A stretch of DNA of 35,276 nt from Bacteroidetes bacterium HGW-Bacteroidetes-21 (lineage in GTDB: Bacteria; Bacteroidota; Bacteroidia; Bacteroidales; GWA2-32-17). Of this stretch, positions 10,909-35,276 are shown one piece after another. The notes below the pieces were generated by a model. It made no database searches and had not been told where the DNA came from. It saw nothing but the letters and a program-made list of their open reading frames with translations. How positions within the stretch are numbered: position 1 is the first letter of the stretch; every line of letters starts with the position of its first letter. A program made the position numbers and the translations under genes. The stretch is from assembly GCA_002840935.1 (NCBI GenBank), contig PHDH01000011.1, forward strand, positions 1-35,276, read 5' to 3'.

Positions 10909-11578
10909 TTTTCGAACAATATTAACATTTTTAGTGTTTTTCTTCTATTTAGATTCTTCAGCTCAGATAGAAAAAGAATTTCTCAATTTGCATAATAAGT
11001 ATAAGAATATTGATACACTTTCAGTATTTATGAACATGCAAGTATTTTATACAAATAATTTATCAAATACTAAATCTGATTTAGCATTGTATAAGTTAAA
11101 AAACATCTTTTTGTATAAGATAGATAAGAATCTGATACTTAGCACGCCTGAAATGGATTTGTTTATTAATAATGATTTAAAGCAAATCCATGTTACTAAT
11201 AAAACTAAGGATAAAAACAGTTCTAATCCAAATGTAAATTTTAACATTTTTGAAGTAGATTCTATATTAAAAAAATGCAAATCAATATCGGGTCCAAATA
11301 TTAATGGGTCTAGTAAAACCTACTGTATGATTTCAGATAATCTACCCATATATAATACTTGTGTGACAATTGATACTGTTACAAGTTTTTTAACTTATGT
11401 TTCGTATGATTATAAAGAAATTGTAAATTCTATTAAACGAGTCGAAATTTCTATAAAGAATTCAAATGTGATGCTTGTAAAAAACGAAATGAATATTAAC
11501 TATTATGTTCAATCTGTTTCAAAAAACAAATATATTCCAACAAAAAAATATATGCATTATGAAATTATTACTAACTAA
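10895..11578 (+). CDS. Small exported protein, possible LolA-like fold
   Basis: 227 aa; signal peptide MIQTSFRTILTFLVFFFYLDSSAQ; strand-rich body (KLKNIFLYKIDKNLILSTPEMDLFINNDLKQIHVTNK). Overlaps neighbours at both ends. The LolA-like assignment is weak. Confidence 0.6.
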   Translation: MIQTSFRTILTFLVFFFYLDSSAQIEKEFLNLHNKYKNIDTLSVFMNMQVFYTNNLSNTKSDLALYKLKNIFLYKIDKNLILSTPEMDLFINNDLKQIHVTNKTKDKNSSNPNVNFNIFEVDSILKKCKSISGPNINGSSKTYCMISDNLPIYNTCVTIDTVTSFLTYVSYDYKEIVNSIKRVEISIKNSNVMLVKNEMNINYYVQSVSKNKYIPTKKYMHYEIITN

Positions 11579-14500: not shown

Positions 14501-17500
14501 CAATTGGGTTGATAGTTGGACTGATATTCTGGTTTTAATGCATCCTGAGTATTGCCAATATGAGAAATGTATGTTTTTGCAACCTTACAAATCATATATA
14601 CATAGATTAATGGTATCTGATATTGACGATGCTAATTACTTTTCTGATTGGTATGCCAATGATCCAATTTTTGATAATTCAGAATTGAATCTTACTGCAT
14701 ATCCTGCTTGCCAAACTTTGAGAACAAATTTTAATACTCAATTAAATAATTTTTATACCCATGTTGATGATGAAGTATACTCTTTATACGAGTTTTGTAT
14801 CAATCAAAGCACATTGAATCCAAACTTTTTGGACCCATTTGATGTGTTTCCATCATCAATGCTTACCAATATTACTGAGGATATTAGAGAATGGTCAATG
14901 TTTATTGCCATGTATTCAGGGATGAGGGATGCCTTTTTAACTGAACTTTATAATTGCATGTATGGCGTTTGCCCATATAGTAATGCTGAACATCCTTTAG
15001 TTCAAAATCCTGAAACTGTCAATGAGTTTGACACTTTTATTACTGAAAATGCGGACTATACTTGTTATGATTGCAATGTGGGTGGTTGTCCGGATTGTCC
15101 CAAATGTGTATCTAATGCGTTGTATTGGTTATCGGTAGTTAATAACAATTGTGGCACTGCTTATGATAATACCAGCGCGTTATATACTCAATTGTTTAAT
15201 TTATGCAAACAGAAATACTCATATACTAATCCTTTTGGGATGCTTTTTGAAAACGACCCAAACACTGTTTCTGCTTTAACTGCAATTATTCAAAACTATA
15301 CTTCATGCCTAAATAATTATATTGATGTTGCAGAAATGATACTTTCTGATTACAACATTGTGTTCTCTACAGATCAATACAATATTTATAATAATGTTGA
15401 ATTAAGTAGTACCAATTCCATTTTGGTAAATTCAATTCTTCATATTCCTTATAAATTAGGTCACAACGGGATAACTCATCCCGATTGTTGTGGTAGTGAT
15501 ATTTGGTATAGTAACACTGGAAAGTATTGGTGGTCGGGCGGAAATACTACCTATTTCAAACTGCTTGATGATGATGGTGTAGAAATTGATTATTCTACTC
15601 TTCAGATAAGTGATGCATTATATACAACATTCCCCATTGAACCTTTTCTTGACTTTAATTTTTATCATAATAACCAGACTAAGGTTGTTAATTTAAACGG
15701 GAATAATGTTGCATTTATTAATACAGCTATCAGATTTCCAGTCAACGAGCGCAATTCTTCGGATGTGTTTTTTGCAAACTTGTACACATATTCTGCTACT
15801 TCGGCTTGTACAAGTTATTTGGATGGTAACGAATGGAACTTATATTGTGGATATTCACAGGATCTTGGCGTAAATACAGGGATATATACTCAAGTACCAA
15901 TAGATATTGTAATGCCTGAGGGTATGGATGAATTAACTCCGTTTAGTCAATCTGATTGTATTAATGATATTATTGCCTCCCAAACCGAAAACTCTTTAGA
16001 TGAATATACGACTAACTTTAATAATTATTGTGAAAGTTATATTCAATCGCATATGGTAAATTGTTTCGAAGGCTTAGACGAAACACTTGAATATTCTTAT
16101 ATAAGTTATGAAAAAGATTATACATTATATTATTATGATCAATCCGGACATCTTGTTCAAACTGTTCCCCCTGAGGATGTTAAATCTGGGATGTTGCCGG
16201 GGCCAACTTATAGTTCTTTTCCAGTTTATTTAATGACAACACGGTATAAATATAATTCGGCTGGAAATATTATTGAGCAAAATACTCCGGATGGAGGTAA
16301 AACAGTATATATTTATAACGATAAGCAACAATTACGTTTTTCTCAAAATAGTGAACAGGAAGTTGTAATTATTGTAAATAGTGCACAGGTTAGAAAATGG
16401 ACTTATTCAAAGTACGATGCATTAAATAGGCCTATTGAAACTGGCGAAATATTGCTTTCTTATGATATAACTGTTAATAATTTTCCTATTGATGATATTA
16501 ATGATGATAGTTATCCTAATGGTATTGACTTATACGAAGTTAATAGGACGTATTATGATAATAAAGTTATTACCCCATTAGCAATTAATGCTGAAAATTT
16601 GCGTAACCGAGTTAGTTCTGTTGAATATTTTGATTATATGCCTCTGGATGGTAGTGGCACGCAGAAATGGGCAACTCACTATTCCTATGATGTTCATGGA
16701 AATGTAAAATCAATGTTGCAAGAAAATGGTTATTTAAGACATATACCCAGTCAAACATATAAGAGAATTGATTATGAATACGATTTAATTAGTGGTAATG
16801 TAAAGCAAGTAGTATATCAAAAAGGTAAATCGGATATGTTTTTGCATAAGTACTATTATGATGCTGATAATAGAATTACAAACGCCTTTACTTCTAATGA
16901 TGGGATTATATGGTCACAGGATGCCAAGTATTTCTACTATTTACATGGTCCGCTTGCACGAGTAGAAACTGGGCAGGATAAGGTTCAGGGTACCGATTAT
17001 GCCTATACTTTGAATGGATGGCTAAAAGGTATTAACTCAAACACACTTACTGCAAAAAGAGATATAGGTAATGATGGTAATACTTCGTATACCAGCCTGA
17101 ATAAATACATGGCACAGGATGTTGTATCCTATGATTTAAATTATTTTGGTGGCGACTACAATCCAATTGAATATATAGCAGCTGGTAACAGAGCTTTTGC
17201 AGATAATTCTAATTTAATATATGGAACCAATACAAATCTTTATTATCTTTACAATGGGAACATTAGTAGCATGATTACAAATATTTACGATATTAATCCT
17301 TTAAACAATTTTGAGCAAATTCCTCAAATTAACGTATATAAATACGATCAATTGAACAGGATTAAAGCTACGAAATCGTATAATTTTAGTGCTCCCGAAG
17401 ATTTTATTACATATAATTCATTTGATCAAATTTCTAACCTAAATTCGGCCAATTGGGAGACTTTTGAATACGACTTAAATGGCAATATTACTGAGCTTAA

Positions 17501-19721
17501 GAGATACAATGCATCAATGAATTTGATGGATGATTTTACTTATTCATACAATAATCCTTTAGGAAGGTTGGTAAATAACAAGCTTAATGGAGTCACCGAT
17601 AACAGCACATTTTCACCCAGCCAATTTGGCCCATATACTTATGATCATACTGGCAATTTGATAAAAGATCCATCAATTGGTGTATTACAAAGTTCTTCAA
17701 AAATTATTTGGAACTTAAACGGAAAAATTAAATCAATTCCTCGACCTAATACAAGCTTAAGTGATTTATACTTTGCATATAACACAAACGGTAACCGGGT
17801 AATGAAATTAGAGAAACCACGAGAGACAAATGGTACGTTAAAAAGTGTTAATGATTGGTTTTTTACCTATTATATTTATGATGCGCAAGGTAATGTAATG
17901 GCTACTTACGATAGAACAATAGATTATAATTCAGAATTTCAATCTACTGAAGAAAGAATATTCTTAAAGGAACATATGTTATATGGTACTTCACGTCTAG
18001 GATACGATGGCGTGACCAGTGAAATTGCATTTTCTGAATTTAAAGATGGTACATATAATTATGATCTGAATGATGGTTCGGTAGAATTAAACTATGATAT
18101 TTGGGATTACAGCGAAACAGATAATAACTCTACTCTGCGTTATCTGCCCATTAATACTTTGGTTAATGCAAATAGAAAAGTTGGGCAACGAACTTACGAG
18201 TTTAGTAACCATTTGGGAAATGTACTCACTACAGTCTCCGATTTAAAAACAGCTGTTTCTCATCCTGGCGAGCCTGATGTATTTAATTGTGGTTTTGATG
18301 GAGAAGAAACCGCATTACTTGGCAATTATAATGCTATTCCAGAGCCAGACAATGCAAGTAACAAGATTATTGCTTTGGTACCTGCTGTATCTCCCGATTT
18401 ATATGTGTTTGGACCAATTTGCAGGTTTAGAGTTTATCCAGGAGATATCGTTTCTATTGGTGTAGGAATGAGAACAAATTCTCCTGTACCTCATTCAAAT
18501 GTTGGTCACATTGTTGCAGGCCTAACAGGAGAAGATGGAAATTGGCTTTTAAATCCGGCAAACCAGCAACCATACTATAACCGAGCACCAAGTGTAAGCC
18601 AAACTCTTACAGATACATGGGTTGTGCTTATGGCTGCCAATCAATTTCAGATACCTTCGAACCTGGGGGATATTCCAATATATGCTACCTTACAGCTTAT
18701 TAACGAACAAAATTGTCTCGAAACTTATTTCGATAACCTTAATGTCTCTATAACACCTGCCAACGCGCATTCTAATTATGTTGCCGATATTACAAGTACT
18801 GCCGATTATTATGCTTTCGGTAGCCTTAAAACTGAACGTACAAATACCAAAGCCTCTTTGGGCTCATACCGCTTCGGATTTAATGGCAAAGAGAAAGATG
18901 ATGAAGTAACAGGCGTGACAGGCAGTCATTTAGACTTTGGAGCAAGAATTTATGATAGTAGGATAGGACGGTGGTTAGCAGTTGACCCGAAATTTTATAA
19001 ATATCCAAGTTTATCTAGTTATTGCTCTTTTGAAAATAGCCCTCTTGCGATAGTTGATCCCGGAGGGGATACGACAGTTTATTTTTCTCAAAAAGGAGAA
19101 TACCTCTACACATCTGTAGATGGATTACCAACTGCTATTACAATAGTTTCAGATAAAAATTTAAAAATATTCAAAGCAACTGCATTCCTAGCATATACTA
19201 AAAAACTTCAACATAATGATAACATTAATAAAGCATTTAGACGAACGGGGATAACCATTGATGTGAACTCATTAAGAAAATTTTATAATAATTCAACGAT
19301 AGTAGGAAAGAATAATTTGGATGAGAATGGAGACCCATATCCTAAAGGTTATTTTAATGAAGCTTCTGATAATTTATATTTAAATAATGGAGTAATTAAG
19401 ATAGGAAGTGGTAAAAACTCAATTATTGGGACATTGGATGAAGTTGGAAAAGGTGGTTACCCTGATAATGAAAATGGACAGGGTGAAAATGCAGGAAATG
19501 CACATACTCATGCGAATGAAGGATTGCGAGACTTTAGGGAAAGGGAGGATGGTCAATATCCAATCTTTGATTGGACTTATAGTAATCAAGATAATTCAAA
19601 TCCTGCAAAACTAAAAGTAGTTGTTGGAAGAGTTAATATACAGGTGTTTGGCAACGATATGGGTTTGATAAGAATTAATAAGAATACTTTAAAAGAAGAT
19701 AAAAATCCTTATAAAAAATGA
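11559..19721 (+). CDS. RHS-repeat polymorphic toxin with N-terminal DUF6443-like region and variable C-terminal (candidate JAMM/JAB-like) tip
   Basis: Start at ATG 11559 (MKLLLTKFRVMQRSFIAAFLTCFFLTLSGNLISGTYEL, signal peptide) overlaps the upstream stop. Many YD/RHS repeats (YKYNSAGNIIEQNTPDGGKTVYIYNDK; FEYDLNGNITELKRY) and the RHS core end YRFGFNGKEKDDEVTGVTGSHLDFGARIYDSRIGRWLAVDP followed by a different C-terminal sequence. The ORF track starts at 11505. Confidence 0.92.
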   Translation: MKLLLTKFRVMQRSFIAAFLTCFFLTLSGNLISGTYELTKFIKKTQITSNATLNLKDNVYFQEETPTSDGYINRSTYIRLKYTRDQQTDVEGKYWIYSVAYTLNPGGQTGILLIKKTPSENIYEAVAAINNNQASVTLTINSVIASYSSDGSNYTQITTPATSSNIPEDIQIELSINTENYKQFYTVNGPVFNFDYLKSTAYWTHLKGAEEYDLEWVFIDDNCEAASNFQYNEDPFNYKEPIRISTKNNHYPVVLNYQEGTVYFRVRGVGRYINGVNGDYTYPSQGAWSYTSYNIAIGFEFDKNMVCTQNFAEDGKSKTVVSYFDGLLNKKQTLSYQNSNEVLVAQTDRYDFEGRPAVDILPVPVEGSGFNYIDDLNLNSNGTELFDKNEFDKSTVESIGKANGAGIYYSDENPFDQDLFRSYIPNCSGYSYVHKKYTDDNTGRLISVSGLGPDLKTGTGHETRYFYSNPNKTELQRLFGLNVGNVKHYKKNYILDPNNQMTASYLDQEGRVIATCLVGNNTGNQIDGYLLDDVSNDSSLISVNADDQNEIVNDNNNIISRNIISIVNEKVGKEYTFSYDMGGRGVVNTMYPIFSLGFEDNEEIQDYALVSGINQTQSHAGTQSFVLEQEKVLLKSYVVKPGDIVNASVFTKTISSGQSASITMALINPSNNEILPNNFFQVNTSNSNVWVQLSIPTYTVPSTATFSGYAFNYYILNVYLEAPTSSEAYYPSWYNPELTWFDDASILVERPGLNCPSCRYDLTFRIFKPDGTILNEIVRDINNSLSSDCSLDYYLTSNDQISFSQTFNEIGEYIIVKELKVNAQSLEDLQVELINFGENNIDCPNSSATVQQAISNLDYSSCETTCEEQFEAECVQWFIDHNQEYVQRDIDECVKSNCEQYMTNTISTGECQGLLERMRQDVSSDGTLYESSLSDPASWWNTADYSIINGTTFTKKDGTTFIFYCDLEHGFDDAEYVSDESNWVDSWTDILVLMHPEYCQYEKCMFLQPYKSYIHRLMVSDIDDANYFSDWYANDPIFDNSELNLTAYPACQTLRTNFNTQLNNFYTHVDDEVYSLYEFCINQSTLNPNFLDPFDVFPSSMLTNITEDIREWSMFIAMYSGMRDAFLTELYNCMYGVCPYSNAEHPLVQNPETVNEFDTFITENADYTCYDCNVGGCPDCPKCVSNALYWLSVVNNNCGTAYDNTSALYTQLFNLCKQKYSYTNPFGMLFENDPNTVSALTAIIQNYTSCLNNYIDVAEMILSDYNIVFSTDQYNIYNNVELSSTNSILVNSILHIPYKLGHNGITHPDCCGSDIWYSNTGKYWWSGGNTTYFKLLDDDGVEIDYSTLQISDALYTTFPIEPFLDFNFYHNNQTKVVNLNGNNVAFINTAIRFPVNERNSSDVFFANLYTYSATSACTSYLDGNEWNLYCGYSQDLGVNTGIYTQVPIDIVMPEGMDELTPFSQSDCINDIIASQTENSLDEYTTNFNNYCESYIQSHMVNCFEGLDETLEYSYISYEKDYTLYYYDQSGHLVQTVPPEDVKSGMLPGPTYSSFPVYLMTTRYKYNSAGNIIEQNTPDGGKTVYIYNDKQQLRFSQNSEQEVVIIVNSAQVRKWTYSKYDALNRPIETGEILLSYDITVNNFPIDDINDDSYPNGIDLYEVNRTYYDNKVITPLAINAENLRNRVSSVEYFDYMPLDGSGTQKWATHYSYDVHGNVKSMLQENGYLRHIPSQTYKRIDYEYDLISGNVKQVVYQKGKSDMFLHKYYYDADNRITNAFTSNDGIIWSQDAKYFYYLHGPLARVETGQDKVQGTDYAYTLNGWLKGINSNTLTAKRDIGNDGNTSYTSLNKYMAQDVVSYDLNYFGGDYNPIEYIAAGNRAFADNSNLIYGTNTNLYYLYNGNISSMITNIYDINPLNNFEQIPQINVYKYDQLNRIKATKSYNFSAPEDFITYNSFDQISNLNSANWETFEYDLNGNITELKRYNASMNLMDDFTYSYNNPLGRLVNNKLNGVTDNSTFSPSQFGPYTYDHTGNLIKDPSIGVLQSSSKIIWNLNGKIKSIPRPNTSLSDLYFAYNTNGNRVMKLEKPRETNGTLKSVNDWFFTYYIYDAQGNVMATYDRTIDYNSEFQSTEERIFLKEHMLYGTSRLGYDGVTSEIAFSEFKDGTYNYDLNDGSVELNYDIWDYSETDNNSTLRYLPINTLVNANRKVGQRTYEFSNHLGNVLTTVSDLKTAVSHPGEPDVFNCGFDGEETALLGNYNAIPEPDNASNKIIALVPAVSPDLYVFGPICRFRVYPGDIVSIGVGMRTNSPVPHSNVGHIVAGLTGEDGNWLLNPANQQPYYNRAPSVSQTLTDTWVVLMAANQFQIPSNLGDIPIYATLQLINEQNCLETYFDNLNVSITPANAHSNYVADITSTADYYAFGSLKTERTNTKASLGSYRFGFNGKEKDDEVTGVTGSHLDFGARIYDSRIGRWLAVDPKFYKYPSLSSYCSFENSPLAIVDPGGDTTVYFSQKGEYLYTSVDGLPTAITIVSDKNLKIFKATAFLAYTKKLQHNDNINKAFRRTGITIDVNSLRKFYNNSTIVGKNNLDENGDPYPKGYFNEASDNLYLNNGVIKIGSGKNSIIGTLDEVGKGGYPDNENGQGENAGNAHTHANEGLRDFREREDGQYPIFDWTYSNQDNSNPAKLKVVVGRVNIQVFGNDMGLIRINKNTLKEDKNPYKK

Positions 19722-20463: not shown

Positions 20464-21354
20464 ATGACAGATATTCCTCAATATTGGACAGAAATACCCG
20501 ATAAAGGCAGATATTGCTACGGATTTAATGGCAAAGAAAAAGACGATGAAATTACTGGACAGACTGGCAGTCACTTAGACTTCGGTGCGAGGATTTATGA
20601 TAGTAGGATTGGGAGATGGTTAGCGTGTGACCCATTAGCAGCGAAATATCCTGATTTAAGTACTTATAATTTTGTTGCAAATAGTCCATTAATATTTATT
20701 GACCCCGATGGAAAAGATATAATTTGGGTTGGAGATTGGACTGCAAAACAAAAGAGAGCGCAAAAAGCTATGCTAAAAACTCAATGGGGGAAAGCTGTTT
20801 ATAGGCAGTTTAATAATTCAAAAACTGATGATATTTACATAGCAGCTTCAAGTGAAATAAGTGGAAAGGCTGTAACTTCTTTTAATGTTAAGAATTCATT
20901 CACAGATAATTTTTATTTCCCTTGGGAAACCCCAACATTAGAATATCAAAATAGTTATGTTCCTGATAATTATAAAAAGTTTGTTAATGCATTTAATGGA
21001 CAGAATGTTAATAATATTGATGCCAGAATGCATTTGCTTCTAGTTGCAAGCGATGCTCTTGAGGGCAATGAATATCAAGCAGCAGCTTTAATAAACCATG
21101 ATATAATTGCACATATTTTGGTTCCTCTTATTTATGGCAAAGATTTACCAGAGAAAACTGAACATGATATTGTAGGAGGCAATCAAGTTGGTAATGCAGC
21201 AAAAAACAGAAGCGGAAGCATTCAGGAAGATATTAATAATGATGCTGCTAATACTCAGAAGAATGGAGAAGGTAGTGTAGACAAAAGTCAACAAAAACTG
21301 GAAAGGGTAGAAAAAGAAGTAAATGAATATAAAACAAATGAGGAGAAAGAATAA
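20464..21354 (+). CDS. Displaced (orphan) RHS tip cassette: RHS core end plus a second C-terminal toxin-like domain
   Basis: YCYGFNGKEKDDEITGQTGSHLDFGARIYDSRIGRWLACDPLAAKYPDLSTYNFVANSPLIFIDPDGKD core then an unrelated tip. In-frame stop at 20452-20454; no signal peptide or upstream RHS repeats. Confidence 0.85.
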   Translation: MTDIPQYWTEIPDKGRYCYGFNGKEKDDEITGQTGSHLDFGARIYDSRIGRWLACDPLAAKYPDLSTYNFVANSPLIFIDPDGKDIIWVGDWTAKQKRAQKAMLKTQWGKAVYRQFNNSKTDDIYIAASSEISGKAVTSFNVKNSFTDNFYFPWETPTLEYQNSYVPDNYKKFVNAFNGQNVNNIDARMHLLLVASDALEGNEYQAAALINHDIIAHILVPLIYGKDLPEKTEHDIVGGNQVGNAAKNRSGSIQEDINNDAANTQKNGEGSVDKSQQKLERVEKEVNEYKTNEEKE

Positions 21355-24497: not shown

Positions 24498-25805
24498 GTG
24501 TCAATATTTAATTTCTATACTGAAATAGAGAACGAATTTGAGTTCCTTTTACCCGAAAGGAATGTAGGTCTTGTTATATTTCATTTATTTCAGAAACTTA
24601 AGAACAAAGACATTTCTGCCACTTTTACCGAAGATGAAATAGTCAAATCAATTAGAGAAGTTCGTAAAGACATAAAAACCGAGCAAAAGGAACAATTTAA
24701 TCAAACGATTAAATCCCTGCAAAAGTATTATCTATGGCGGGATGAAGAAAAAAGAGTATATCGCTTTCGTCCTTATGCAATTAAACTTTGTGAAGCGATT
24801 AATGAAATTCTTTTTGAAAATTTTAATCCGACAGAAATACAGAAAGATTTCAAACTATTACTTAATGAGTTAAAAGAAAAGCAATTTGAACAATGGTATG
24901 AATACTTCTTTAGTAAATATAGCGACAAAGTAGGTACTCAAATTTCAGCTTTAGACAGGCAAATTTTTATGGAAGTCTCAGAATTTCGTCAGAAGATATC
25001 AGATGATGAAACTTATGATATTGTGGTATTAAAAAATATTGTTGAAAAGCTGGAAGAGATAAGGAAGAAAACCGATGAGTTAAATGTAGCGTTTGATAGC
25101 TCTTATGAAATTAATAGGTTTCTAATGGACTTTCTCTCAGAGCCGAAGAATGCCACATACACAGAAAAAGTAAACCGTGTAATCAATTTCTTTAAAGATG
25201 TCCGAGAAAACCTCAAAATAATTAGTAAAAAGATTGATAGTCTGAAACCTAAGCTAAATGAGTATATAAGAGATATAAATAGAAAAGATTTTTATAAGAA
25301 ATTCAAAGCATTTATCAAGTTCACATTAGATACAAGTATAATTGAAAAAGGAGAAATAGCATTACCTCAAGAAATTAGCCGATGTGCAATTGGGATGTCA
25401 AGTAAACCCAGATTCATAATTATCAAAGAAAGTCTGGATATTGAGAATATTCATTCGCCCAGAAACATGCGGTTACAAGCTCCTCAATATAATAAAGAAA
25501 AGGCTATAGAAAAACTGCATAATGAGAATGAACGATTATTGCTTAATAAAAGAGTTAAAGGCTATTTAAGAGAATTGGAAAGTAAGTTAGAGAAAACAAA
25601 AGAAGTTGATTTTTCGATTTATTTTTTTGATATACTAAATAGGGAAAAAGGAAACATTAATGTGGTGGTAAAACTGGCTTATTTAGTAATGAATAAGTAT
25701 AATCGACATCAGGAATTTGGAATATCGATAACAGGAGAAAAAATCAGCAATCATAAATATCCCTCAATTTCAGTATGGCAAACGATAATTTACAAGAAAA
25801 TTTAA
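24498..25805 (+). CDS. Wadjet/MksF (JetA)-like accessory subunit, divergent
   Basis: 435 aa, GTG start with in-frame stop at 24492; helical/coiled-coil protein, first gene of an operon with an SMC-like ATPase and a Toprim protein. Assigned mainly by position and size. Confidence 0.6.
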   Translation: MSIFNFYTEIENEFEFLLPERNVGLVIFHLFQKLKNKDISATFTEDEIVKSIREVRKDIKTEQKEQFNQTIKSLQKYYLWRDEEKRVYRFRPYAIKLCEAINEILFENFNPTEIQKDFKLLLNELKEKQFEQWYEYFFSKYSDKVGTQISALDRQIFMEVSEFRQKISDDETYDIVVLKNIVEKLEEIRKKTDELNVAFDSSYEINRFLMDFLSEPKNATYTEKVNRVINFFKDVRENLKIISKKIDSLKPKLNEYIRDINRKDFYKKFKAFIKFTLDTSIIEKGEIALPQEISRCAIGMSSKPRFIIIKESLDIENIHSPRNMRLQAPQYNKEKAIEKLHNENERLLLNKRVKGYLRELESKLEKTKEVDFSIYFFDILNREKGNINVVVKLAYLVMNKYNRHQEFGISITGEKISNHKYPSISVWQTIIYKKI

Positions 25806-26458
25806 ATTATAGTTTTTTACTACATCCGGATGCAAAAGATTTGTTTGCAGAACTGGATTATGCTTTAAAAAACGGACAACATATTCAGAAACAAACAAAA
25901 CCTGATGGGATATTCAACTTCATCAGGCATGAATTTAATAGCTTTAAAGAATATTATAAAGAATATTTTGAACTATATCTTAGTACAGAGGGGTTGGATG
26001 ATGAACAATATTATTTCATTGACTTCAGAAGAGATCCAAACGGAAACTTCAGCAGAGGGAAAATTCCTTTAGGCAACAGAGAATATTTAAAAGATTCATA
26101 TATTATTATAGGATTTTTATTAATCAGAATTTACATATTAGAGTTGAATCCTGAAATCAAACATTCCATAACCGGATTTAAAAACAGGATATTGCATGAT
26201 TATGAGGAATATAAAACAAGTCTCCTGCGATTGTTTGCCAAAAGTAATGATATAAATAATACGGATTATGAGGAAGACTCTATCGATAATCCAATAGAAA
26301 ATGCCTTAAAAAAATTCAATGAATTAGGATGGATTCTGCTTGATAAGAATAGTGATATATTTGAGATATTGCCATCCTGTAAACGACTGCTCAAAATATA
26401 CGAAGAAAACATTCGTGATATTGATAATATTATTAAACAAAATACCACAAAAGGATGA
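25775..26458 (+). CDS. Wadjet/MksE (JetB)-like accessory subunit, divergent
   Basis: 227 aa; overlaps the upstream gene by 31 nt and the downstream ATPase by 4 nt (ATGA). Assigned by operon position and size. Confidence 0.6.
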   Translation: MANDNLQENLNYSFLLHPDAKDLFAELDYALKNGQHIQKQTKPDGIFNFIRHEFNSFKEYYKEYFELYLSTEGLDDEQYYFIDFRRDPNGNFSRGKIPLGNREYLKDSYIIIGFLLIRIYILELNPEIKHSITGFKNRILHDYEEYKTSLLRLFAKSNDINNTDYEEDSIDNPIENALKKFNELGWILLDKNSDIFEILPSCKRLLKIYEENIRDIDNIIKQNTTKG

Positions 26459-29400
26459 CCGCTAAAAGCTTTCCCCGAATATACAGTTTGTCAACGGTTG
26501 GTATTCGTAATCATTACCATACGAACTATCTATTTCATCCTTTCCGTACTGACTTCACGGGAGATAGCGGAGTAGGAAAGACAATTATTGCTGATATTTT
26601 ACAGCTTATTCTTGTCGGTGAAAAAGAATATAAATCAGCAACAGAAGCAAATGAAGAAAGAGAAGTCCGAAAGCTGCCATTAGGACGTTTTGGTTATGTT
26701 TTTTTGAATATTGAGGTAGATAACAAGCAATACCTTGTAATTGGAATGTTTATCAGTAATGGTGGTGTAGAACCATTTATCATCCAACAAGGTTACGATT
26801 GGGAAAACTTTACCCCATTAACAGAACCCTTATCATATCGTAAGATTTTAATAAATGATAATGTTATTGATATTGATGCTCTTGCAGAACAGTTGACTGA
26901 CGTATATTGCAAAAAATTTTCCCTAAAAAAATATCATGAATACTTACGCAAGTATGAAATTCTCCCCATTGATTTAATAAACGATGGGGAATTAAAAAAT
27001 TACGCTCAGATAATTCGTTCATTTTCAAGAGGTAGAGGTTTCAAAAATGATTCTGAAGGATTAAAAAGGTTCTTTTTTAATGATGGTAAAGAAAATGAAA
27101 TTTATGAAAAATTTCAGAGACAACTGAACGAAATGGATGCCGACCTGAAAGATCAGCGGAGAAATAAAGACGACATTGAAAATGTCAGAAAAAAGGAAAA
27201 TAGATTAATTGAATTAAAAAAATTAAAGAGTGAAAAAGAATCATCCGAATTAACGTACTATGAAGCAAAAACCATATATCATTTCCGTAATATCGAAAAT
27301 TTTAAGAAACAAATCAGCCTAAACAAAAACTCAATAATTAAAGTTAATAAATCTATTGTTCAATTTCGATTACAAGAGTTGGAAACAGATGAAAAAACAT
27401 TGAGGTGTGAAATAGATAATATTGATAAAGAGTTTGATAATATCATAACGATAGAAAAGAGTTTAGATGATGCAAATAATAATATTGAAAAATATAGTGA
27501 AACGAAACAAGAAGTTGATCAACGTTACCCTGAATTAGATAAGCTTTATCTACAAATGTTGGAAGTTGACAAATGGTTAGTACAATATAAAACGATAGAC
27601 GAACTAAGGTCAGCATTCTACAATCAATTAGAAAACAAAAAAGAAAGGGATAACCTGAAATCATTTGAGAATGAACTAAGGCAAAAAAAACTTTATGAGA
27701 AATTCCTAAAGTCAAAGTGGGCAATAGATATCAAAGAAGGGAATAAATTTTACAATGACGAAAAAAAACGTATTGAAAATGAAATTCAAAACTTAAAAGC
27801 CATCCAAAATTTTTCAGATACCAGTAACAAATATTCACTGGCAAGCTGGATTCTGAATAACTTACAAAAATTAACCCATGAACAGGAAAGTGTTTTTGTT
27901 CATTTTCAAAAACTTGTTACCAGAAAACCTGAAGTATTTCATAAGGGTGATCGATATCTTTCAGAACCTTTGGAATTATTAGATAATTTGAGGATTGAGG
28001 AAAGTGGAAAAAATGGATTCTGGTTATATATAAATGGAATAAGGGAGTATATAAAATATGTCCCTGTTCAAATATTCAACAGTACTGACAAAGAAAAAAT
28101 CACTAACTATTTTAAAGAAAATTATCAAGAAGCTGATGAAAAACTAAACCATCTAAATGATGAGAAAGAAGATTTAGAGGATCTTAATAATAATGTGAAT
28201 AAATTTGGAGAAAATATTGTTGCCAAATATCCCAAGAAACAAGAACTTGAATCATTTCCTGCTAATGAAAGCCTAAGCAAATCAGAGGAAGAGTTTGAGC
28301 AATATCTTAGAGATTATTTCAACAGAGATGAAATTGTTGTACTAAAGAAAAGCATTCAGTCTTTGAAGCCATTAAATGATTCTGGAGAATTATTTCTTAG
28401 AAATATAGACAACATAAAAACGGAATTAAAGGACTTTTTGAAAAATAATGGAATAGATGCAGAATCAGAATTTGAGGATATTAAGCATAAGTTGAACATT
28501 CTTCGTGATAAAAAGCAAAAATCTATTTCTGATAATGAAAACAGGTATATTCGATATAATAAGCTACTTTCATCCTATAGTGAAAGCCAAGGAACAGCAG
28601 AATTTGTAAAAACTATTGATAAATTAAGTATTTACAAAGAAATGGAGCGTAAATTATCACAAAAGGAAAGACTTAAACAAGAGATAAAAAATATACAAGC
28701 TCAAGTATTATCAGAAAATAAGCTCTATCAAGAATTTAATGTCAAATACGAAGCATTATCTAATACGAAACTTATATTTAATATTAATAGTTTCGAAGGA
28801 AAGTTTACAAATCCCGATGTTGAGGAAAAACACAATATGGAGCTTGCAAAGACGCTTTATTTAAAAGATTATAAATCTATAGTAGAAGAATATATTGATA
28901 TTTCAGAAAAAATCCAATTCGAAAACTCAGAAGATTTTATTTTACTGGCAAAACATATGGTTTCAGAAGTACTTGCAAAACGTATAATTAATGAAGATAC
29001 TGCAATACTGGATGAAATAAGAAAATACTTAACAGAGCTTACTGAAAAACTTTCAGAATTAAGTGAAAGAAAGTATAAGCTACTTAAAGAGCTTTTTATT
29101 GAAGTCAGAGAAGTATTTAGTGAATATATTTTTACAATTAATAATATCGCCAATTATTTTCGTGGCAACGAAAAACAAATATCTCAAGGGTACAAACTTA
29201 TTCTTAAGCACACATTTTCTGACACATATCCAATTGGATGGATTGACGATTTTCTTAGAAAACTTGACGAAACAATTGGGAGAGAAAGAATAAACTCAGG
29301 TCTATTCAGTGTCTTGCGTGAAAAGATTGATATTACGGATATCATGATAACAGCGTATCATCAATGTGGTGGTAAATCAAAAAGTCCGGATGCAAAAGAA

Positions 29401-29802
29401 TTACTCAACCCCAAAAGGTACTTTGACATCTCATTTAATATGCAGGCAGATGATGGAGAACTCAATGTGGGAAGTGCTGGTCAGACATATGCAGCAGTAG
29501 CCCTTTTATGTATAGCAAGATTATCATTAATTGACCAAAGCGGTAGACTTCGCAAAGGTTTGCGGTTTATGCCAATAGATGAAGCTGAAGGAATAGGAAG
29601 TAATTATGACTTATTGGAAAATATTGCAAAAACAAATGATTATCAAATAATTTCTATGTCAATAAGGCCTTTAGATGATTTCAAGGAGGGTGAACAATAT
29701 CTTTATATACTTAATGGCAGGATGGGAAAAAATGAGAGAATCAACACTTTTGCCATTTTTAGTGAAGAAGTGGGTATAACAGAACATACAGGAGAATTAT
29801 AA
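26455..29802 (+). CDS. SMC/MksB (JetC)-like ATPase
   Basis: 1115 aa; Walker A GDSGVGKT (codons at 26560-26583), long coiled coils, signature-like LNVGSAGQTYAAVALLCIARL, Walker B-like RFMPIDEAEGIG. Confidence 0.8.
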   Translation: MTAKSFPRIYSLSTVGIRNHYHTNYLFHPFRTDFTGDSGVGKTIIADILQLILVGEKEYKSATEANEEREVRKLPLGRFGYVFLNIEVDNKQYLVIGMFISNGGVEPFIIQQGYDWENFTPLTEPLSYRKILINDNVIDIDALAEQLTDVYCKKFSLKKYHEYLRKYEILPIDLINDGELKNYAQIIRSFSRGRGFKNDSEGLKRFFFNDGKENEIYEKFQRQLNEMDADLKDQRRNKDDIENVRKKENRLIELKKLKSEKESSELTYYEAKTIYHFRNIENFKKQISLNKNSIIKVNKSIVQFRLQELETDEKTLRCEIDNIDKEFDNIITIEKSLDDANNNIEKYSETKQEVDQRYPELDKLYLQMLEVDKWLVQYKTIDELRSAFYNQLENKKERDNLKSFENELRQKKLYEKFLKSKWAIDIKEGNKFYNDEKKRIENEIQNLKAIQNFSDTSNKYSLASWILNNLQKLTHEQESVFVHFQKLVTRKPEVFHKGDRYLSEPLELLDNLRIEESGKNGFWLYINGIREYIKYVPVQIFNSTDKEKITNYFKENYQEADEKLNHLNDEKEDLEDLNNNVNKFGENIVAKYPKKQELESFPANESLSKSEEEFEQYLRDYFNRDEIVVLKKSIQSLKPLNDSGELFLRNIDNIKTELKDFLKNNGIDAESEFEDIKHKLNILRDKKQKSISDNENRYIRYNKLLSSYSESQGTAEFVKTIDKLSIYKEMERKLSQKERLKQEIKNIQAQVLSENKLYQEFNVKYEALSNTKLIFNINSFEGKFTNPDVEEKHNMELAKTLYLKDYKSIVEEYIDISEKIQFENSEDFILLAKHMVSEVLAKRIINEDTAILDEIRKYLTELTEKLSELSERKYKLLKELFIEVREVFSEYIFTINNIANYFRGNEKQISQGYKLILKHTFSDTYPIGWIDDFLRKLDETIGRERINSGLFSVLREKIDITDIMITAYHQCGGKSKSPDAKELLNPKRYFDISFNMQADDGELNVGSAGQTYAAVALLCIARLSLIDQSGRLRKGLRFMPIDEAEGIGSNYDLLENIAKTNDYQIISMSIRPLDDFKEGEQYLYILNGRMGKNERINTFAIFSEEVGITEHTGEL

Positions 29803-29812
29803 AAATGCATTT

Positions 29813-30778
29813 ATGGACAAACAATTGACATGGAGAGAAATCAAGGCATTAAACCAGCTTTATTATGATAGAAACACCAAGGCCAAAATAGATAATAGGC
29901 CATATATTAAATACTTAATCGAAGACGGATTTATAGATTATAAGCGAGGGACTAAAAAAATACTTCAGCCAACTTATAAATTCAACAAAAAATTTGAATC
30001 TGAATGCTTTTCAGAACTCTATAACGGATATAATATCTTCTTATTGGAAAATAATCTTTTATCTGATTATACAAATTTTACCGAGTTTGAAATAAAAGGT
30101 TTAATGACCCTCATAAAATCACAAACCATACTACAAGATCTACAAAGTAAAATACTAGCCGGTCAGGAAAGTCGAAAAGGAGTATCAACTCTGTTCTTCA
30201 AATCTGCTAAATATATAAGGAAAAATTCTGCTTTAGAAAAAGCTGTTTTAAAGTTATTGAATATAGAAACATTCCCACAAAATGAGAATCAGGGATTTTA
30301 CAGGGTTCCGAGTAAAAATCCAAAAGCTATTATACTATGTGAAAACATGTACTTTTTAACTTTGAATATTGCTCAAAGTAACGATATTGAATTATGGTGT
30401 GCTGGTGGGAATAATACCAAACCTATTGAAAATATACCCAAAATAGACTATCCAATTTTTTATCTTTGTGATTGGGATTATGATGGGTTGAAAATATTTG
30501 AGAGGCTTCTTGAAATCGTCGAAAAAACACCTACTAAAAAAACGTCCCTGCAATTACTATCACCTAAAGGTAAAAGAGAGAATATTATTGCCACACATGA
30601 CCATCATCGAAGCCAATGGAAACAGGAAATTAAATTTTCCGGATTGACACCATCCTGTTACACATCGGAACAGATTCAATTAATAAATAACCTGATTGTA
30701 AACAATGAGTGGATTGAAGAAGAGAGCAATGATTTGGGATTGATAATAAATAAAATCAATAGTGAACTTGCCAGGTAG
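29813..30778 (+). CDS. JetD/MksG-like Toprim nuclease
   Basis: 321 aa; ILCENMYFLTL (acidic Toprim motif) and IFYLCDWDYDGLKIFERLLEI (DxD motif) match the CEN...DxDxxG arrangement of JetD-type Toprim proteins. Confidence 0.72.
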   Translation: MDKQLTWREIKALNQLYYDRNTKAKIDNRPYIKYLIEDGFIDYKRGTKKILQPTYKFNKKFESECFSELYNGYNIFLLENNLLSDYTNFTEFEIKGLMTLIKSQTILQDLQSKILAGQESRKGVSTLFFKSAKYIRKNSALEKAVLKLLNIETFPQNENQGFYRVPSKNPKAIILCENMYFLTLNIAQSNDIELWCAGGNNTKPIENIPKIDYPIFYLCDWDYDGLKIFERLLEIVEKTPTKKTSLQLLSPKGKRENIIATHDHHRSQWKQEIKFSGLTPSCYTSEQIQLINNLIVNNEWIEEESNDLGLIINKINSELAR

Positions 30779-30838: not shown

Positions 30839-32308
30839 ATGTCAAAGTGTTACATCTGCAATAGAGAATTAATTGAAAGGAACTACTATGAACAAAACAT
30901 AGATAGTTTTAATGATAAACCAGCCATTAATCACAAAGAACATATAATACCTAATGCTTTACATGGTAGATTTAAAGCAGAAAATATATTGTGCTCAGAT
31001 TGTGGAGGAATTCTCAGTAAAAGTATTGATTCACCTTTTTGTAGCCTTTTTAATGTTATTACAGAGCAACTTAAACATGTACTAATAACTAAAGATCATG
31101 GAAAAAGCAATGAACCACCAGTTCTAAAAGGATATTTATATAAAGACGAGTCATTTAAAGAAAAAATTGAGATTAATTATAAAGATAAAAAAGTTTCCCC
31201 AGAAAATCCATATTATGAATTAGACACATCCACAAACAAGTTAACCATTTTCGCAAATAAAAGAAGGGCTAAACATTTTAAAGAAGTAGTCTTAAATGAA
31301 CTAAGAGAGAAAGGAATTAAAACGGGTGAGTTAGTAATTGAAGTAAAAACAGATATTGAAGATCAAAGATTTTTAGGTTTGTTCTTCACAGAAAATATTC
31401 AAGATTTTAATGCCAAATTTAAGAAGGGATTCTGCAAGATAGCTGTTGAATTTGCTCTTCATAAGGGAATTAAAAGAGAGGGTTTAAAGAATGTACTAAA
31501 AATAAACACCGACCAAACGGCTGAACATATTGATTCTAAAAATTTAATACCTTTTTTCCCATTAAGTTCTTTTGACAAGTTTTATGAAACAAACCGATTA
31601 GATATTGAAACGAATTATCCTACACATGAAATAATCTTGTTTACTCAACATTATACCAATAATACGAAAAAACTCTTTTGTTTTATTTCTCTTTTCAGTA
31701 CGTTTCAATACTATGTTTTATTAAATGATAAATACACAGGCCCGGATGTCGTTGAAACTTATTGTCAAACAGTTTTAAAACAAGAATTTCCCGATATCAA
31801 TATAAGAAGTATCAGACCAAAACATTTAAGCATTATTGTTCATAATTTTGGAATTGATACCTCAAAATACAAAGGGGAATCACTATCTGATTATATAGAT
31901 TTCATTGAAAAGGAATATAAAAATCTGAAGGCTAAATACGAGTTAGATATTTTTGGAGAGTTGAAAGAATCAGCATCGGTTTTATTAACAAGCTTTACCC
32001 TCTCAAAATCTGCAAAAACGGAACTTTTGGAACATATCTCATATCGTAATGTTATTAAGAGTTTTGCTGATTTTCCAGAAAATCAAACAATTGCTTTTTT
32101 GAGGGAAGCTCAAGCAATTCACGAAGATAGCTTTATATACTATAAAAGAAGTTTCTTTGAAGATGATGGACATGGGCAATTAGAAAACTTATCCTACCCG
32201 GATGAGTTAATAAAAGAAATGAACAGAAATTCTCAAATCTGTAAAGCATACGGCCATTTAAAATTTGGAGAATTATCCAAATTCATCGAAAAGAATAAAT
32301 CAAAATAA
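30839..32308 (+). CDS. HNH endonuclease-like protein (HNH_5-like N-terminus)
   Basis: 489 aa; CYICNREL...NHKEHIIPNALHGRFKAENILCSDCGGILSKSIDSPFCSLFN, a CxxC...HEHIIPxxLxG...CxxC HNH zinc-finger arrangement. Confidence 0.75.
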   Translation: MSKCYICNRELIERNYYEQNIDSFNDKPAINHKEHIIPNALHGRFKAENILCSDCGGILSKSIDSPFCSLFNVITEQLKHVLITKDHGKSNEPPVLKGYLYKDESFKEKIEINYKDKKVSPENPYYELDTSTNKLTIFANKRRAKHFKEVVLNELREKGIKTGELVIEVKTDIEDQRFLGLFFTENIQDFNAKFKKGFCKIAVEFALHKGIKREGLKNVLKINTDQTAEHIDSKNLIPFFPLSSFDKFYETNRLDIETNYPTHEIILFTQHYTNNTKKLFCFISLFSTFQYYVLLNDKYTGPDVVETYCQTVLKQEFPDINIRSIRPKHLSIIVHNFGIDTSKYKGESLSDYIDFIEKEYKNLKAKYELDIFGELKESASVLLTSFTLSKSAKTELLEHISYRNVIKSFADFPENQTIAFLREAQAIHEDSFIYYKRSFFEDDGHGQLENLSYPDELIKEMNRNSQICKAYGHLKFGELSKFIEKNKSK

Positions 32309-32309
32309 C

Positions 32310-34442
32310 ATGAACCCGAAACCTGAAAATTCAGAGAATTTATTAGCCCAATTCAAAGAAACAGTAGACAAATATTCTGCGAATATTACTTCAGATAACC
32401 TTATTGATATTAGCAAGCAATTTGGAATTGACACTACGAGAGGTTATTCTGCTCATCAGGTTTCGCAAATAATCTATGGAAAAATTAAAGAATCATTAAA
32501 AATTGATTCAGAAAAAGAACCGGAAAAAATATCAAGGACACGATTATTAAATTTACAGGCAGAGTTGATTTACAGGCATGTGCTTTATAATGAAGACCCT
32601 GTTGAATATATAATGACATTGAAAGTTATTAATGATTCATGTAGACCGGATATGAACTATTTTCCACCGTTTTCAGACGTAGAAAAATGGGAATCCGCAA
32701 TAACCAACTGTAAAAGTTACAATAAATTTTCACTGACAACGCATAAAATTCTATATGATGATATCAGGAAAGACTATCCGGAAGATTATGACATTGCAAA
32801 TTCTGTTAAACAGCTAATAGAAAAAGGATGTACGATTGAAATTGTGAATTCAGATATACTTATCACAAGCGGGATGGAAGCTGTTATTGACGAACTTAAT
32901 GAAAAGGTTAGGACTATTGGGGGTATTGTTCTGGCTAAATCATTATTAAATCATCTGACCCATATTGGTAAATATTCTAAACGATTCGAACGCTTTTTCA
33001 TAACACGTGAAACCAGTGGTGTTAGCTTTGACCAAAAGCCACAAATACCATACGGTTTTCTATTGAATTTATCGTTAAAGTACCCTTGTGAAAACCTGAA
33101 AATAATTGACCCACAAAAACTATTGGATGAAATAATCCATTTAGCAATTATTATCACAAACGGAGCATATGGAGTGCAGCCTTACAATTTTTGGACATTT
33201 CATTTTCAAACAGGAGACACCATAATTAAATTCTGTACGGAAATAGCTCTATGGGATTCAATGTTTTCAATACCACAATGCCGAACTTCTACTGCTATTG
33301 AAATAACAGACAAGCTGTTTTCTTATATTGATGAAGAAACTTTCAAGGGAACATTTGGTTTCTCAAGACAAGAGTTTATTGAAGTCTTAAATGAGATACA
33401 AAAAATGGCTTCAGAAACTAATATGCCTGTTATCATTTATTACTCAACTATAAGCAAAAAATTAAAACAAATCGACAAAGAAACGATACTTAAAATTCTA
33501 AACTTTCTTTCACATTCCGATGGTGTAAATGAGAACTATACGTTACCGTCAGATTATTCTTCAATAGACTTTTATTTAAAACCATTGTTGAAGCAGGGAA
33601 ATACAAAATTCCTGCTAATGAATAAATCATGGTGTTCACCAAATTACTTTGAATCATTAGCTACAAGACTCAGAGAGTCCTTTAAAAAACAGAAAAAAGA
33701 TTTAGATGCTGAATTAGGTACACAACTTGAAATCTTTTTACAAAATAAACTTACTGAAAAAGGAATAATATTCTCAACCGGAGATTATAAAGTGGGTGGG
33801 ATAGCCGGTGAATGTGACCTTTTAATAGAATCTGAAAAAGCAATTGTGCTCATTGAGTTCAAAAAGAAAGTATTAACAAGAAAATCCAAGTCTGGTATTG
33901 ATACAAATATATTACTTGATTTATCTGACAGTATCTTAACCGCACAACTTCAGGCTGGAAGAACAGAAATAATATTAAGGGAACAGGGGAACATTACTCT
34001 GAAAGCAAAAGATGGGACGGAAACCATTGTGTATTTCAATAACAGGCAGATCGAAAGAGTCGCTCTTACCCAGCTTGAATTCGGAGGTTTTCAGGACAGA
34101 AGCATTATAAATCAATTTCTAAAATCGCTGCTTACACATTCCTTTGGAACATTCTCCGAAGACACAAATATAATTAAGAAATTTAAAGAACTTGCAGAGA
34201 AACAGGAGCAATGGGTAGAACAGTATAACAAATTATATGAGTTGGATAAAGGATTTGCTCATTACCCGTTTTTTAACTGTTGGTTTTTAAGCCTTCCACA
34301 GTTACTTGAAGTGATAAACATTTCATCTGATAACAATACTTTTCATGAAGTATTTCGCAAAACAAAGCATGTTACAATGAGCACACTTGATTGGTATAGA
34401 GAATTTGATACTGTTACTAAGTTGAAAAGAAAACAGGAATAG
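32310..34442 (+). CDS. PD-(D/E)XK nuclease-domain protein
   Basis: Start ATG 32310 lies 1 nt after the upstream stop. C-terminal GTQLEIFLQNKLTEKGIIF...GIAGECDLLIESEKAIVLIEFKKKVL fits E...ExD...ExK. The ORF track starts at 32265. Confidence 0.72.
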   Translation: MNPKPENSENLLAQFKETVDKYSANITSDNLIDISKQFGIDTTRGYSAHQVSQIIYGKIKESLKIDSEKEPEKISRTRLLNLQAELIYRHVLYNEDPVEYIMTLKVINDSCRPDMNYFPPFSDVEKWESAITNCKSYNKFSLTTHKILYDDIRKDYPEDYDIANSVKQLIEKGCTIEIVNSDILITSGMEAVIDELNEKVRTIGGIVLAKSLLNHLTHIGKYSKRFERFFITRETSGVSFDQKPQIPYGFLLNLSLKYPCENLKIIDPQKLLDEIIHLAIIITNGAYGVQPYNFWTFHFQTGDTIIKFCTEIALWDSMFSIPQCRTSTAIEITDKLFSYIDEETFKGTFGFSRQEFIEVLNEIQKMASETNMPVIIYYSTISKKLKQIDKETILKILNFLSHSDGVNENYTLPSDYSSIDFYLKPLLKQGNTKFLLMNKSWCSPNYFESLATRLRESFKKQKKDLDAELGTQLEIFLQNKLTEKGIIFSTGDYKVGGIAGECDLLIESEKAIVLIEFKKKVLTRKSKSGIDTNILLDLSDSILTAQLQAGRTEIILREQGNITLKAKDGTETIVYFNNRQIERVALTQLEFGGFQDRSIINQFLKSLLTHSFGTFSEDTNIIKKFKELAEKQEQWVEQYNKLYELDKGFAHYPFFNCWFLSLPQLLEVINISSDNNTFHEVFRKTKHVTMSTLDWYREFDTVTKLKRKQE

Positions 34443-34520
34443 ATTATTTTTTGTATCACTTATTATATTTCTAAACAGTTACTTAAGCCTGCAACTTGAA
34501 AATCAATTTTAGTTATAGCA

Positions 34521-34630
34521 ATCGGCTCCAAATCGACTCCATATCGATTTCACATCGGGAACGTATCGAATAACTATCGGTTAAATATTGGAAAACTATC
34601 GGATACATATTGGGCACATATCGGGTACGA
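34521..34630. repeat. Ten degenerate direct repeats at an exact 11-bp period
   Basis: Cores ATCGG/ATCGA/ATTGG begin at 34521, 34532, 34543, 34554, 34565, 34576, 34587, 34598, 34609 and 34620; rough consensus ATCGGNTAMAT. Confidence 0.93.
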
Positions 34631-34665
34631 AATAAACAACGTTGGAAAACCGTTGAAATCAGTAT

Positions 34666-35166
34666 ATGAGCCGTACAAAAAGCACAATTCAGAAGCGACA
34701 GAGAGAAAAAATGCTTTCCCAGAGCAAGGAACAGCTTGTAGAAACCATTCTGCAATTACAGGAAAAAGTAAATCAGTATGAAGAAAAACTACTTCAAAGA
34801 ATAGAAGAATACGAACAACTATCAAAAAAACATCAAGAACAGCAAACAGACAACACCCCGGTTGTTGTGCCTAGCAAGAAACTAAGCTGGGTTGGGAAAA
34901 TTGTTTACGCTTTAGCTACCAGAGATTGTCCCATGCAATCCTCAGAAATAGTTGACTTCATAGAAAAATTCGATAACACAGCCTTTAAAAACGCTACAGA
35001 CAAATCCAAGTACCTTTCCTCCTTTCTTGGAAATGCCCTGAAGTTCGAAAGGATTTGCCGGTATAAACAAAAAGGGATCCGGGGTCATTTCTACACATTG
35101 CCCCAATGGTGCGATGAGAATGGCAACCTGAAGAGAGAATACAAGGAAAAAGAACCCATCGTTTAA
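34666..35166 (+). CDS. Coiled-coil plus winged-helix-like protein, candidate DNA-binding protein
   Basis: 166 aa; N-terminal coiled coil SKEQLVETILQLQEKVNQYEEKLLQRIEEYEQLSKKHQEQ; C-terminal SWVGKIVYALATRDCPMQSSEIVDFIEKF...LSSFLGNALKFERICRYKQKGIRGHFYTLPQW looks like a winged helix with a beta-wing. Confidence 0.6.
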   Translation: MSRTKSTIQKRQREKMLSQSKEQLVETILQLQEKVNQYEEKLLQRIEEYEQLSKKHQEQQTDNTPVVVPSKKLSWVGKIVYALATRDCPMQSSEIVDFIEKFDNTAFKNATDKSKYLSSFLGNALKFERICRYKQKGIRGHFYTLPQWCDENGNLKREYKEKEPIV

Positions 35167-35276
35167 AACTTTGTATTTGACATTTCCGGGAATATTAAAC
35201 ACAAACCGGAATTATTCAGCATAAACAGTCAAAAAGCGACAAAACCGGGAAAGTTCAGTTTTCGGATGTCGGAACT

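What the first reader, a model, noticed from the sequence alone, without database searches (positions are those of the whole stretch)
34510..34665. Ten 11-bp phased degenerate repeats directly upstream of a putative DNA-binding protein
Seen directly: ten units, ATCGGCTCCAA / ATCGACTCCAT / ATCGATTTCAC / ATCGGGAACGT / ATCGAATAACT / ATCGGTTAAAT / ATTGGAAAACT / ATCGGATACAT / ATTGGGCACAT / ATCGGGTACGA, with no spacing errors. The core is conserved while the other positions have diverged. That argues for selection on helical phasing rather than recent slippage. Two weaker units (CGTTGGAAAAC, CGTTGAAATCA) follow at 34640 and 34651, about 1 bp out of phase. Established comparison: the parC centromere of plasmid R1 has ten 11-bp direct repeats bound by ParR; iteron and operator arrays are also helically phased. 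Inference: this is a cooperative binding array (operator, centromere-like or silencing nucleation site), probably recognised by the 166-aa product of the next gene. No ParM or ParA gene is visible here.
Basis: partly seen in the sequence, partly recalled or inferred. Interest (0 to 1): 0.85.

Follow-up and report, generated by a model that had tools for sequence, protein, structure and literature searches.

The report
Regulator-linked phased 11-bp operator array
Ten degenerate 11-base repeats in front of a small DNA-binding-type gene belong to a widespread, previously unnamed regulator-plus-array switch found on mobile islands of Bacteroidota bacteria, most of which carry phage-defence genes; the repeats are most likely where the protein lines up on DNA to control its own gene.

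Summary
In detail: ten 11-bp units run without a spacing error from 34521 to 34630, 35 bp before a 166-aa gene. The fixed core is AT(C/T)G(G/A); the other positions have diverged. None of 100 shuffles of the window gave even three phased units. A second copy in the same genome (79% protein identity) has its own ten-unit array. Across 39 relatives, 30 have 11 bp as the strongest period upstream (16 of 144 control gaps do). The core differs between lineages (TATCGG, TAAGAAC, ATTAGAA, GCATGGCTCTT, AAGGTGGAAAC and others) and tracks the protein. Distant chromosomal homologues lack arrays. In 16 relatives the array starts 0-8 nt after the -7 box of the gene's own Bacteroidetes-type promoter. In relatives the pair is the last part of a tRNA-integrated recombinase module, with interchangeable cargo (Gabija, BREX, Wadjet, RM, AbiE) beginning right after it; in the window, Wadjet-like genes lie upstream. 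The best reading is a cooperative operator array bound by a coiled-coil/winged-helix autoregulator of mobile, mainly defence-carrying islands, working like 186 Apl, P2 Cox or BldC but not homologous to them. A parC-like centromere is not supported. Binding and repression are inferred, not shown.

The parts
34521..34630 (+). array of ten 11-bp degenerate direct repeats, core AT(C/T)G(G/A)
   Evidence: ten-unit counterpart in the second copy
34640..34661 (+). two weaker 11-bp units (CGTTGGAAAAC, CGTTGAAATCA), 1-2 bp off register
   Evidence: CCGTTGAAAT is also kept before the start codon of the second copy
34666..35166 (+). gene for a 166-aa protein: N-terminal coiled-coil helix (about residues 3-59) and C-terminal winged-helix-type domain (about 75-144); presumed reader of the array
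   Evidence: AlphaFold secondary structure H-H-H-E-E (low confidence); no Pfam/NCBIfam family
34542..35167 (+). segment shared (82% DNA identity) with the second copy on contig C283: most of the array plus the gene, and nothing on either side
24498..30778 (+). four-gene Wadjet/MksBEFG-like defence operon (435, 227, 1115 and 321 aa) upstream of the array; presumed cargo
   Evidence: MksE E=3.9e-16; JetC1 E=2.2e-4; JetD_C weak, E=0.11; gene order and sizes
30839..32308 (+). HNH-domain protein (489 aa), presumed cargo
   Evidence: PF14279 E=1.7e-6
32265..34442 (+). 725-aa protein with a GECDLLIE..IVLIEFKKK stretch that looks like a PD-(D/E)xK nuclease motif (by eye), presumed cargo
   Evidence: translation; no significant Pfam or PADLOC hit

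Best explanation
The array is a cooperative operator for the product of the gene it precedes. [quoted passage not shown] Occupancy covers or abuts the promoter of the regulator gene and represses it, keeping this regulator of an integrating mobile island at a set level; in relatives with a divergent recombinase operon it probably also influences that promoter about 190 bp away. Shown: array-gene linkage, the constant 11-bp period with lineage-specific core, co-variation with the protein, placement at the promoter in many relatives, and the mobile-island context with mainly defence cargo in relatives. Inferred: DNA binding, cooperativity, repression, and control of recombinase or cargo.
For: Second copy in the same genome has its own array, also ten units; columns 1, 2 and 4 are identical in 10/10 order-paired units while tail columns vary. 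In 39 family members 11 bp is the best of 15 periods in 30, against 16 of 144 control intergenic gaps, binomial 2e-21; counting one per lineage by hand, 12 of 14. Phased fits show many different cores at the same period. Array similarity tracks winged-helix identity: Mantel r=0.86, 0/2000 permutations; r=0.37, 0/2000 for pairs under 60% identical. A promoter-like TAnnTTTG box lies 0-8 nt before the first repeat (overlapping it by 1 in two) in 16 loci, 15 of them with a TTG 22-23 bp upstream of the box; it lies inside the array in four others and after it in several more; such variable placement suits a repressor. No second array elsewhere in the inspected elements. Apl has the same site design, needs three or more adjacent sites and represses promoters (PMC7498355); BldC binds direct repeats head-to-tail (PMC5859096).
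Against: No binding or expression data. The structure prediction is weak (mean pLDDT 64 and 48; only two sequences were permitted in the alignment), and the Foldseek hits, mostly winged-helix domains, are not significant. The window's own promoter was not identified: there is no TAnnTTTG box in its upstream region. Several relatives have weak or no arrays (L192, L201, L207, L208, L216).
Confidence: 0.68

Rival explanations
1. Centromere-like stability site: the protein coats the array and tethers or pairs the excised circular island, in the manner of plasmid R388 StbA/stbDR (no motor needed) or ParR/parC.
For: R388 stbDRs are two sets of five 9-bp repeats spaced by 2 nt (11-bp period) around the promoter of the stbABC operon, and StbA alone suffices for stability (PMC3098194). 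Placement at the own promoter is common to centromeres and operators.
Against: No ParM/ParA/TubZ-like gene was seen in the inspected islands. The elements are integrated at tRNA genes, sometimes with little cargo (L173), where partition has little use. No plasmid or phage record encodes a relative of the window protein.
Confidence: 0.12
2. Recombination-directionality (excisionase-type) system: the protein coats the array to steer excision by the recombinase, and represses its own promoter as a second role, as RdfS, P2 Cox and 186 Apl do.
For: Conserved neighbour of a site-specific recombinase (serine or tyrosine) in many relatives; the Apl, Cox and RdfS precedents combine both roles.
Against: In the serine-recombinase islands the array lies about 3 kb from the tRNA end and no second array is found near the attachment end, whereas Apl has a second set of sites at attP. 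Most recombinases here are serine recombinases, whose known directionality factors generally act on the integrase rather than on arrays (general knowledge).
Confidence: 0.15
3. The array is read by another protein (for example the divergent MerR-domain partner, or a host nucleoid protein), and the downstream gene is only linked.
For: A MerR-domain protein (PF13411 E=1.2e-10) is divergent from the array in group A; BldC, a MerR-like protein, binds direct repeats.
Against: The only gene common to all array-bearing loci is the winged-helix gene; a MerR-domain neighbour of this kind is missing in G000, G073 (301-aa protein without MerR hit), tyrosine-recombinase islands and the XRE-type elements. 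Array similarity follows the winged-helix protein.
Confidence: 0.08
4. Slippage-derived minisatellite without function.
For: Unrelated 11-bp tandem repeats with similar cores do occur in other Bacteroidota genomes and in viral contigs.
Against: Those are mostly near-perfect copies and none of the viral loci encodes a relative; here the tails have diverged while core and spacing are kept in two independently diverged copies and across many relatives.
Confidence: 0.02

Closest known systems
Phage 186 Apl operators (and P2 Cox, P4 Vis, RdfS)
   Same: Direct repeats 10-11 bp apart at a regulatory promoter, one weak site per helical turn, three or more adjacent sites needed, small DNA-binding protein of a mobile element (PMC7498355, PMC11963761)
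   Different: No detectable homology; the protein here is about twice as long with an N-terminal coiled coil; no second array near the attachment end; most relatives go with serine recombinases
BldC of Streptomyces
   Same: Winged-helix protein on direct repeats, head-to-tail, at promoters (PMC5859096)
   Different: BldC is a 68-residue MerR-like chromosomal regulator without a coiled coil; different family
StbA/stbDRs of plasmid R388
   Same: 11-bp period (9-bp repeat plus 2 nt) around the promoter of the protein's own operon; single DNA-binding protein (PMC3098194)
   Different: R388 has two blocks of five and a companion ATPase-like StbB on a conjugative plasmid; here one block, on integrated islands, no StbB-like gene seen
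ParR/parC of plasmid R1
   Same: Ten 11-bp direct repeats near the promoter of the binding protein (general knowledge)
   Different: ParR is ribbon-helix-helix and works with the actin-like ParM; neither is present here

Membership tests
Type II partition (ParMRC) | actin-like ParM gene in the same operon | tested here: not met
   No such ORF in the window or seen by eye in the inspected islands
Type II partition (ParMRC) | ribbon-helix-helix ParR | tested here: not met
   No Pfam RHH hit; predicted coiled coil plus H-H-H-E-E winged-helix order (low confidence)
Apl/Cox/RdfS-type dual regulators | phased 10-11 bp direct repeats at a regulatory promoter | tested here: met
   (in relatives; promoter of the window itself not identified)
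Apl/Cox/RdfS-type dual regulators | second set of the same sites near the attachment site | tested here: not met
   Secondary-array scan at or near shuffle level in the extended loci, apart from an extension of the same array in L200; attachment end not present in the window contig
Apl/Cox/RdfS-type dual regulators | sequence homology to the family | tested here: not met
   No Pfam or NCBIfam hit of this kind in any of 31 members
Apl/Cox/RdfS-type dual regulators | stimulates excision | not testable with these tools
   Needs an excision assay
StbA/stbDR | 11-bp-period direct repeats around the promoter of the protein's own operon | tested here: met
   (relatives); array directly upstream of the gene in the window
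StbA/stbDR | StbA homology and stbBC partner genes | tested here: not met
   No StbA Pfam or NCBIfam hit; no StbB-like neighbour seen
HARE-HTH winged-helix domain | significant profile match | tested here: inconclusive
   Weak hits in one family member (E=0.0038) and one chromosomal relative (E=0.015); hhalign to B. subtilis RpoE sequence negative
Coiled-coil/winged-helix array-linked family (described here) | 11-bp-phased array directly upstream of the gene | tested here: met
   30 of 39 members with best period 11; window array

The most novel reading that the evidence does not exclude
A private address system for defence islands: each island lineage carries its own regulator and a matched 11-bp-phased array whose sequence diversifies with the regulator while the period stays fixed, so islands can be controlled separately (immunity or incompatibility groups), and the regulator filament gates both the recombinase and the expression of newly acquired defence cargo, which starts right behind the regulator gene.
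Probability: 0.25. Interest if true: 0.82.

Novelty: new variant of a known kind. Interest (0 to 1): 0.62.

Why it matters
It names a so far undescribed regulator family with an easily recognised DNA signature, and ties it to mobile islands that carry Gabija, BREX, Wadjet, restriction and abortive-infection genes in Bacteroidota. How such islands keep their recombinase and costly cargo under control is largely unknown; here the operator, the candidate repressor and the promoter can all be read from sequence, so the question can be tested directly. The matched divergence of array and protein gives a natural library for learning how a winged helix picks its DNA site.

Tried and rejected
RNA-level element: no Rfam match and no unusual fold (z=+1.0). 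Coding repeat: 11 bp is not a multiple of three and the array lies between genes. Perfect-repeat minisatellite: unlike the near-identical 11-bp repeats found elsewhere. No relative in viral contigs, and none of the window protein in plasmids or phages. The partner and recombinase queries from G073 find nothing in the window's genome, so its mobility genes were not identified. No tRNA-derived direct repeat at the far end of the islands was found. The literature searches found no description of this array-regulator pair, but only open-access papers are held.

Full report
Observation. Their first five bases are 84% identical between units and the last six 43%. A three-unit pattern gives 8 hits, all inside the array, and none in 100 dinucleotide shuffles of the window. 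Two weaker units follow at 34640 and 34651. The 166-aa gene starts at 34666.

Second copy. The window is the whole contig C325 of a 326-contig, 3.9-Mb assembly. The gene has a 79% identical paralogue on contig C283, also preceded by an 11-bp array. That array has ten units too, one of them 12 bp long. Pairing the units by order, columns 1, 2 and 4 are identical in 10 of 10 and column 3 in 7 of 10, while most tail columns have drifted. DNA similarity between the copies covers 34542-35167 only: the array from its third unit plus the gene, and nothing on either side. So array and gene form one conserved unit.

Family and linkage. A relative in Bacteroidetes bacterium GWF2_33_38 (44% identity) has an 11-bp array with core ATTAGA. 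A class-wide scan and two narrower scans gave 39 members with usable upstream sequence. The best period among 7 to 21 was 11 in 30 of 39. In 144 control intergenic gaps of the same loci it was 11 in 16, so chance would give about 4 (binomial 2e-21). Many members are close relatives; counted by lineage, a grouping made by hand, it is 12 of 14. Distant chromosomal homologues, several with basic KKRGRKPK linkers, show no array: 11 bp was the best period in none of the ten tested.

Changing core, constant period. Phased fits give RTAAGAACNNT in one large group, and ATTAGAA, GCATGGCTCTT, AAGGTGGAAAC, CCTATGAA, TATGTTATTA, ATATAGAA, GTTACTTATAT or TATCGG elsewhere. Similarity between arrays follows winged-helix identity (Mantel r=0.86, 0 of 2000 permutations reach it; r=0.37, 0 of 2000, for pairs under 60% identical). 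Shared ancestry contributes to this, but it shows that the array evolves with this gene. A search for five ATYGR units in 99 related genomes found diverged arrays only at the two places in the window's own genome; the hits in five other genomes are mostly near-perfect tandem copies.

Placement at the promoter. In 16 loci a TAnnTTTG box, the known -7 element of Bacteroidetes promoters (general knowledge; the motif appears in Bacteroides promoter papers listed), is followed by the first repeat 0-8 nt later (overlapping by 1 nt in two loci); 15 of the 16 have a TTG 22-23 bp upstream of the box. The array thus begins at about the transcription start. In four others the box lies inside the array, and in several it lies after the array. 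An array that can sit before, on or after the start fits a repressor better than an activator. No second array was found elsewhere in the inspected elements. The window itself has no such box upstream, so its promoter is not identified.

The elements. In the largest group of relatives the order is tRNA gene, serine recombinase, MerR-domain protein, array, winged-helix gene, cargo. Others have a tyrosine recombinase (by eye) or XRE-type neighbours. One island of at least 11.9 kb is 99.8% identical in two genomes of different families, inserted at different tRNA-Leu genes, with the similarity starting exactly at the tRNA 3' end. Comparisons L231-L230, L231-L176 and L172-L173 show similarity that ends at the end of the winged-helix gene, with different DNA beyond. 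Cargo includes Gabija, type IIG, I and II restriction systems, BREX, AbiE and Lambda-4-type genes; the Wadjet call in L232 rests on gene order and a JetD hit of 5.9e-6. Not every island carries a recognised defence system. In the window the presumed cargo (Wadjet-like genes, an HNH protein and a possible nuclease) lies upstream of the array, as does the presumed cargo in GWF2_33_38. No recombinase or partner gene was identified next to the window's array, because the contig ends 110 bp after the gene and the queries used found none in the genome. The mobile-island context of the window is therefore inferred from relatives.

The protein. It is an N-terminal helix of about 57 residues followed by H-H-H-E-E, the order of a winged helix. 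No Pfam or NCBIfam family fits; weak HARE-HTH hits are the only hint.

Mechanism. The same design, weak direct repeats one helical turn apart read cooperatively by a small protein of a mobile element, is established for phage 186 Apl, which needs three or more adjacent sites and represses its promoters. BldC binds direct repeats head-to-tail, and RdfS forms winged-helix filaments. I therefore read the array as the autoregulatory operator of the downstream gene. It works like Apl but is not a member of that family: there is no homology and no second array near the attachment end. StbA/stbDR of R388 shares the 11-bp period around its own promoter, so a stability role cannot be excluded, but a ParMRC centromere is not supported.

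Noticed in passing
window 24498-30778: Divergent Wadjet/MksBEFG-like operon that PADLOC barely recognises (JetC E=2.2e-4; MksE by Pfam E=3.9e-16).
   Followed up: partly
L174 12243-13964 and L017 4155-5768: The serine recombinase genes run through the attachment site into the antisense strand of the host tRNA gene, so the C-terminal tail of the recombinase is encoded by the tRNA it has inserted into.
   Followed up: partly
L232 (G848) and L238 (G868): A defence island of at least 11.9 kb, 99.8% identical, sits at different tRNA-Leu genes in two genomes of different families: a recent transfer.
   Followed up: partly
L023-L031 (chromosomal loci of related genomes): A family of chromosomal coiled-coil/winged-helix proteins, several with AT-hook-like KKRGRKPK linkers, unnamed in Pfam, without arrays.
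   Followed up: no
L241 (G098), L239 (G021), L242 (G049): Several near-perfect 11-bp tandem repeats (ATCGAACACCT, ATTGAGTTCCT, ATTGAAGGGAG) in other genomes of the same order, origin unknown.
   Followed up: no
window 4018-19721 and 20464-21354: Two very large Rhs/YD-repeat-like proteins followed by a further ORF that begins with the same Rhs core end (GFNGKEKDDE..GSHLDFGARIYDSRIGRWL), like an extra C-terminal tip.
   Followed up: no
L003 677-5250 (second copy's contig): Three unannotated ORFs (470, 470 and over 507 aa; one with a P-loop-like motif) next to the second array: possible unrecognised defence genes.
   Followed up: no
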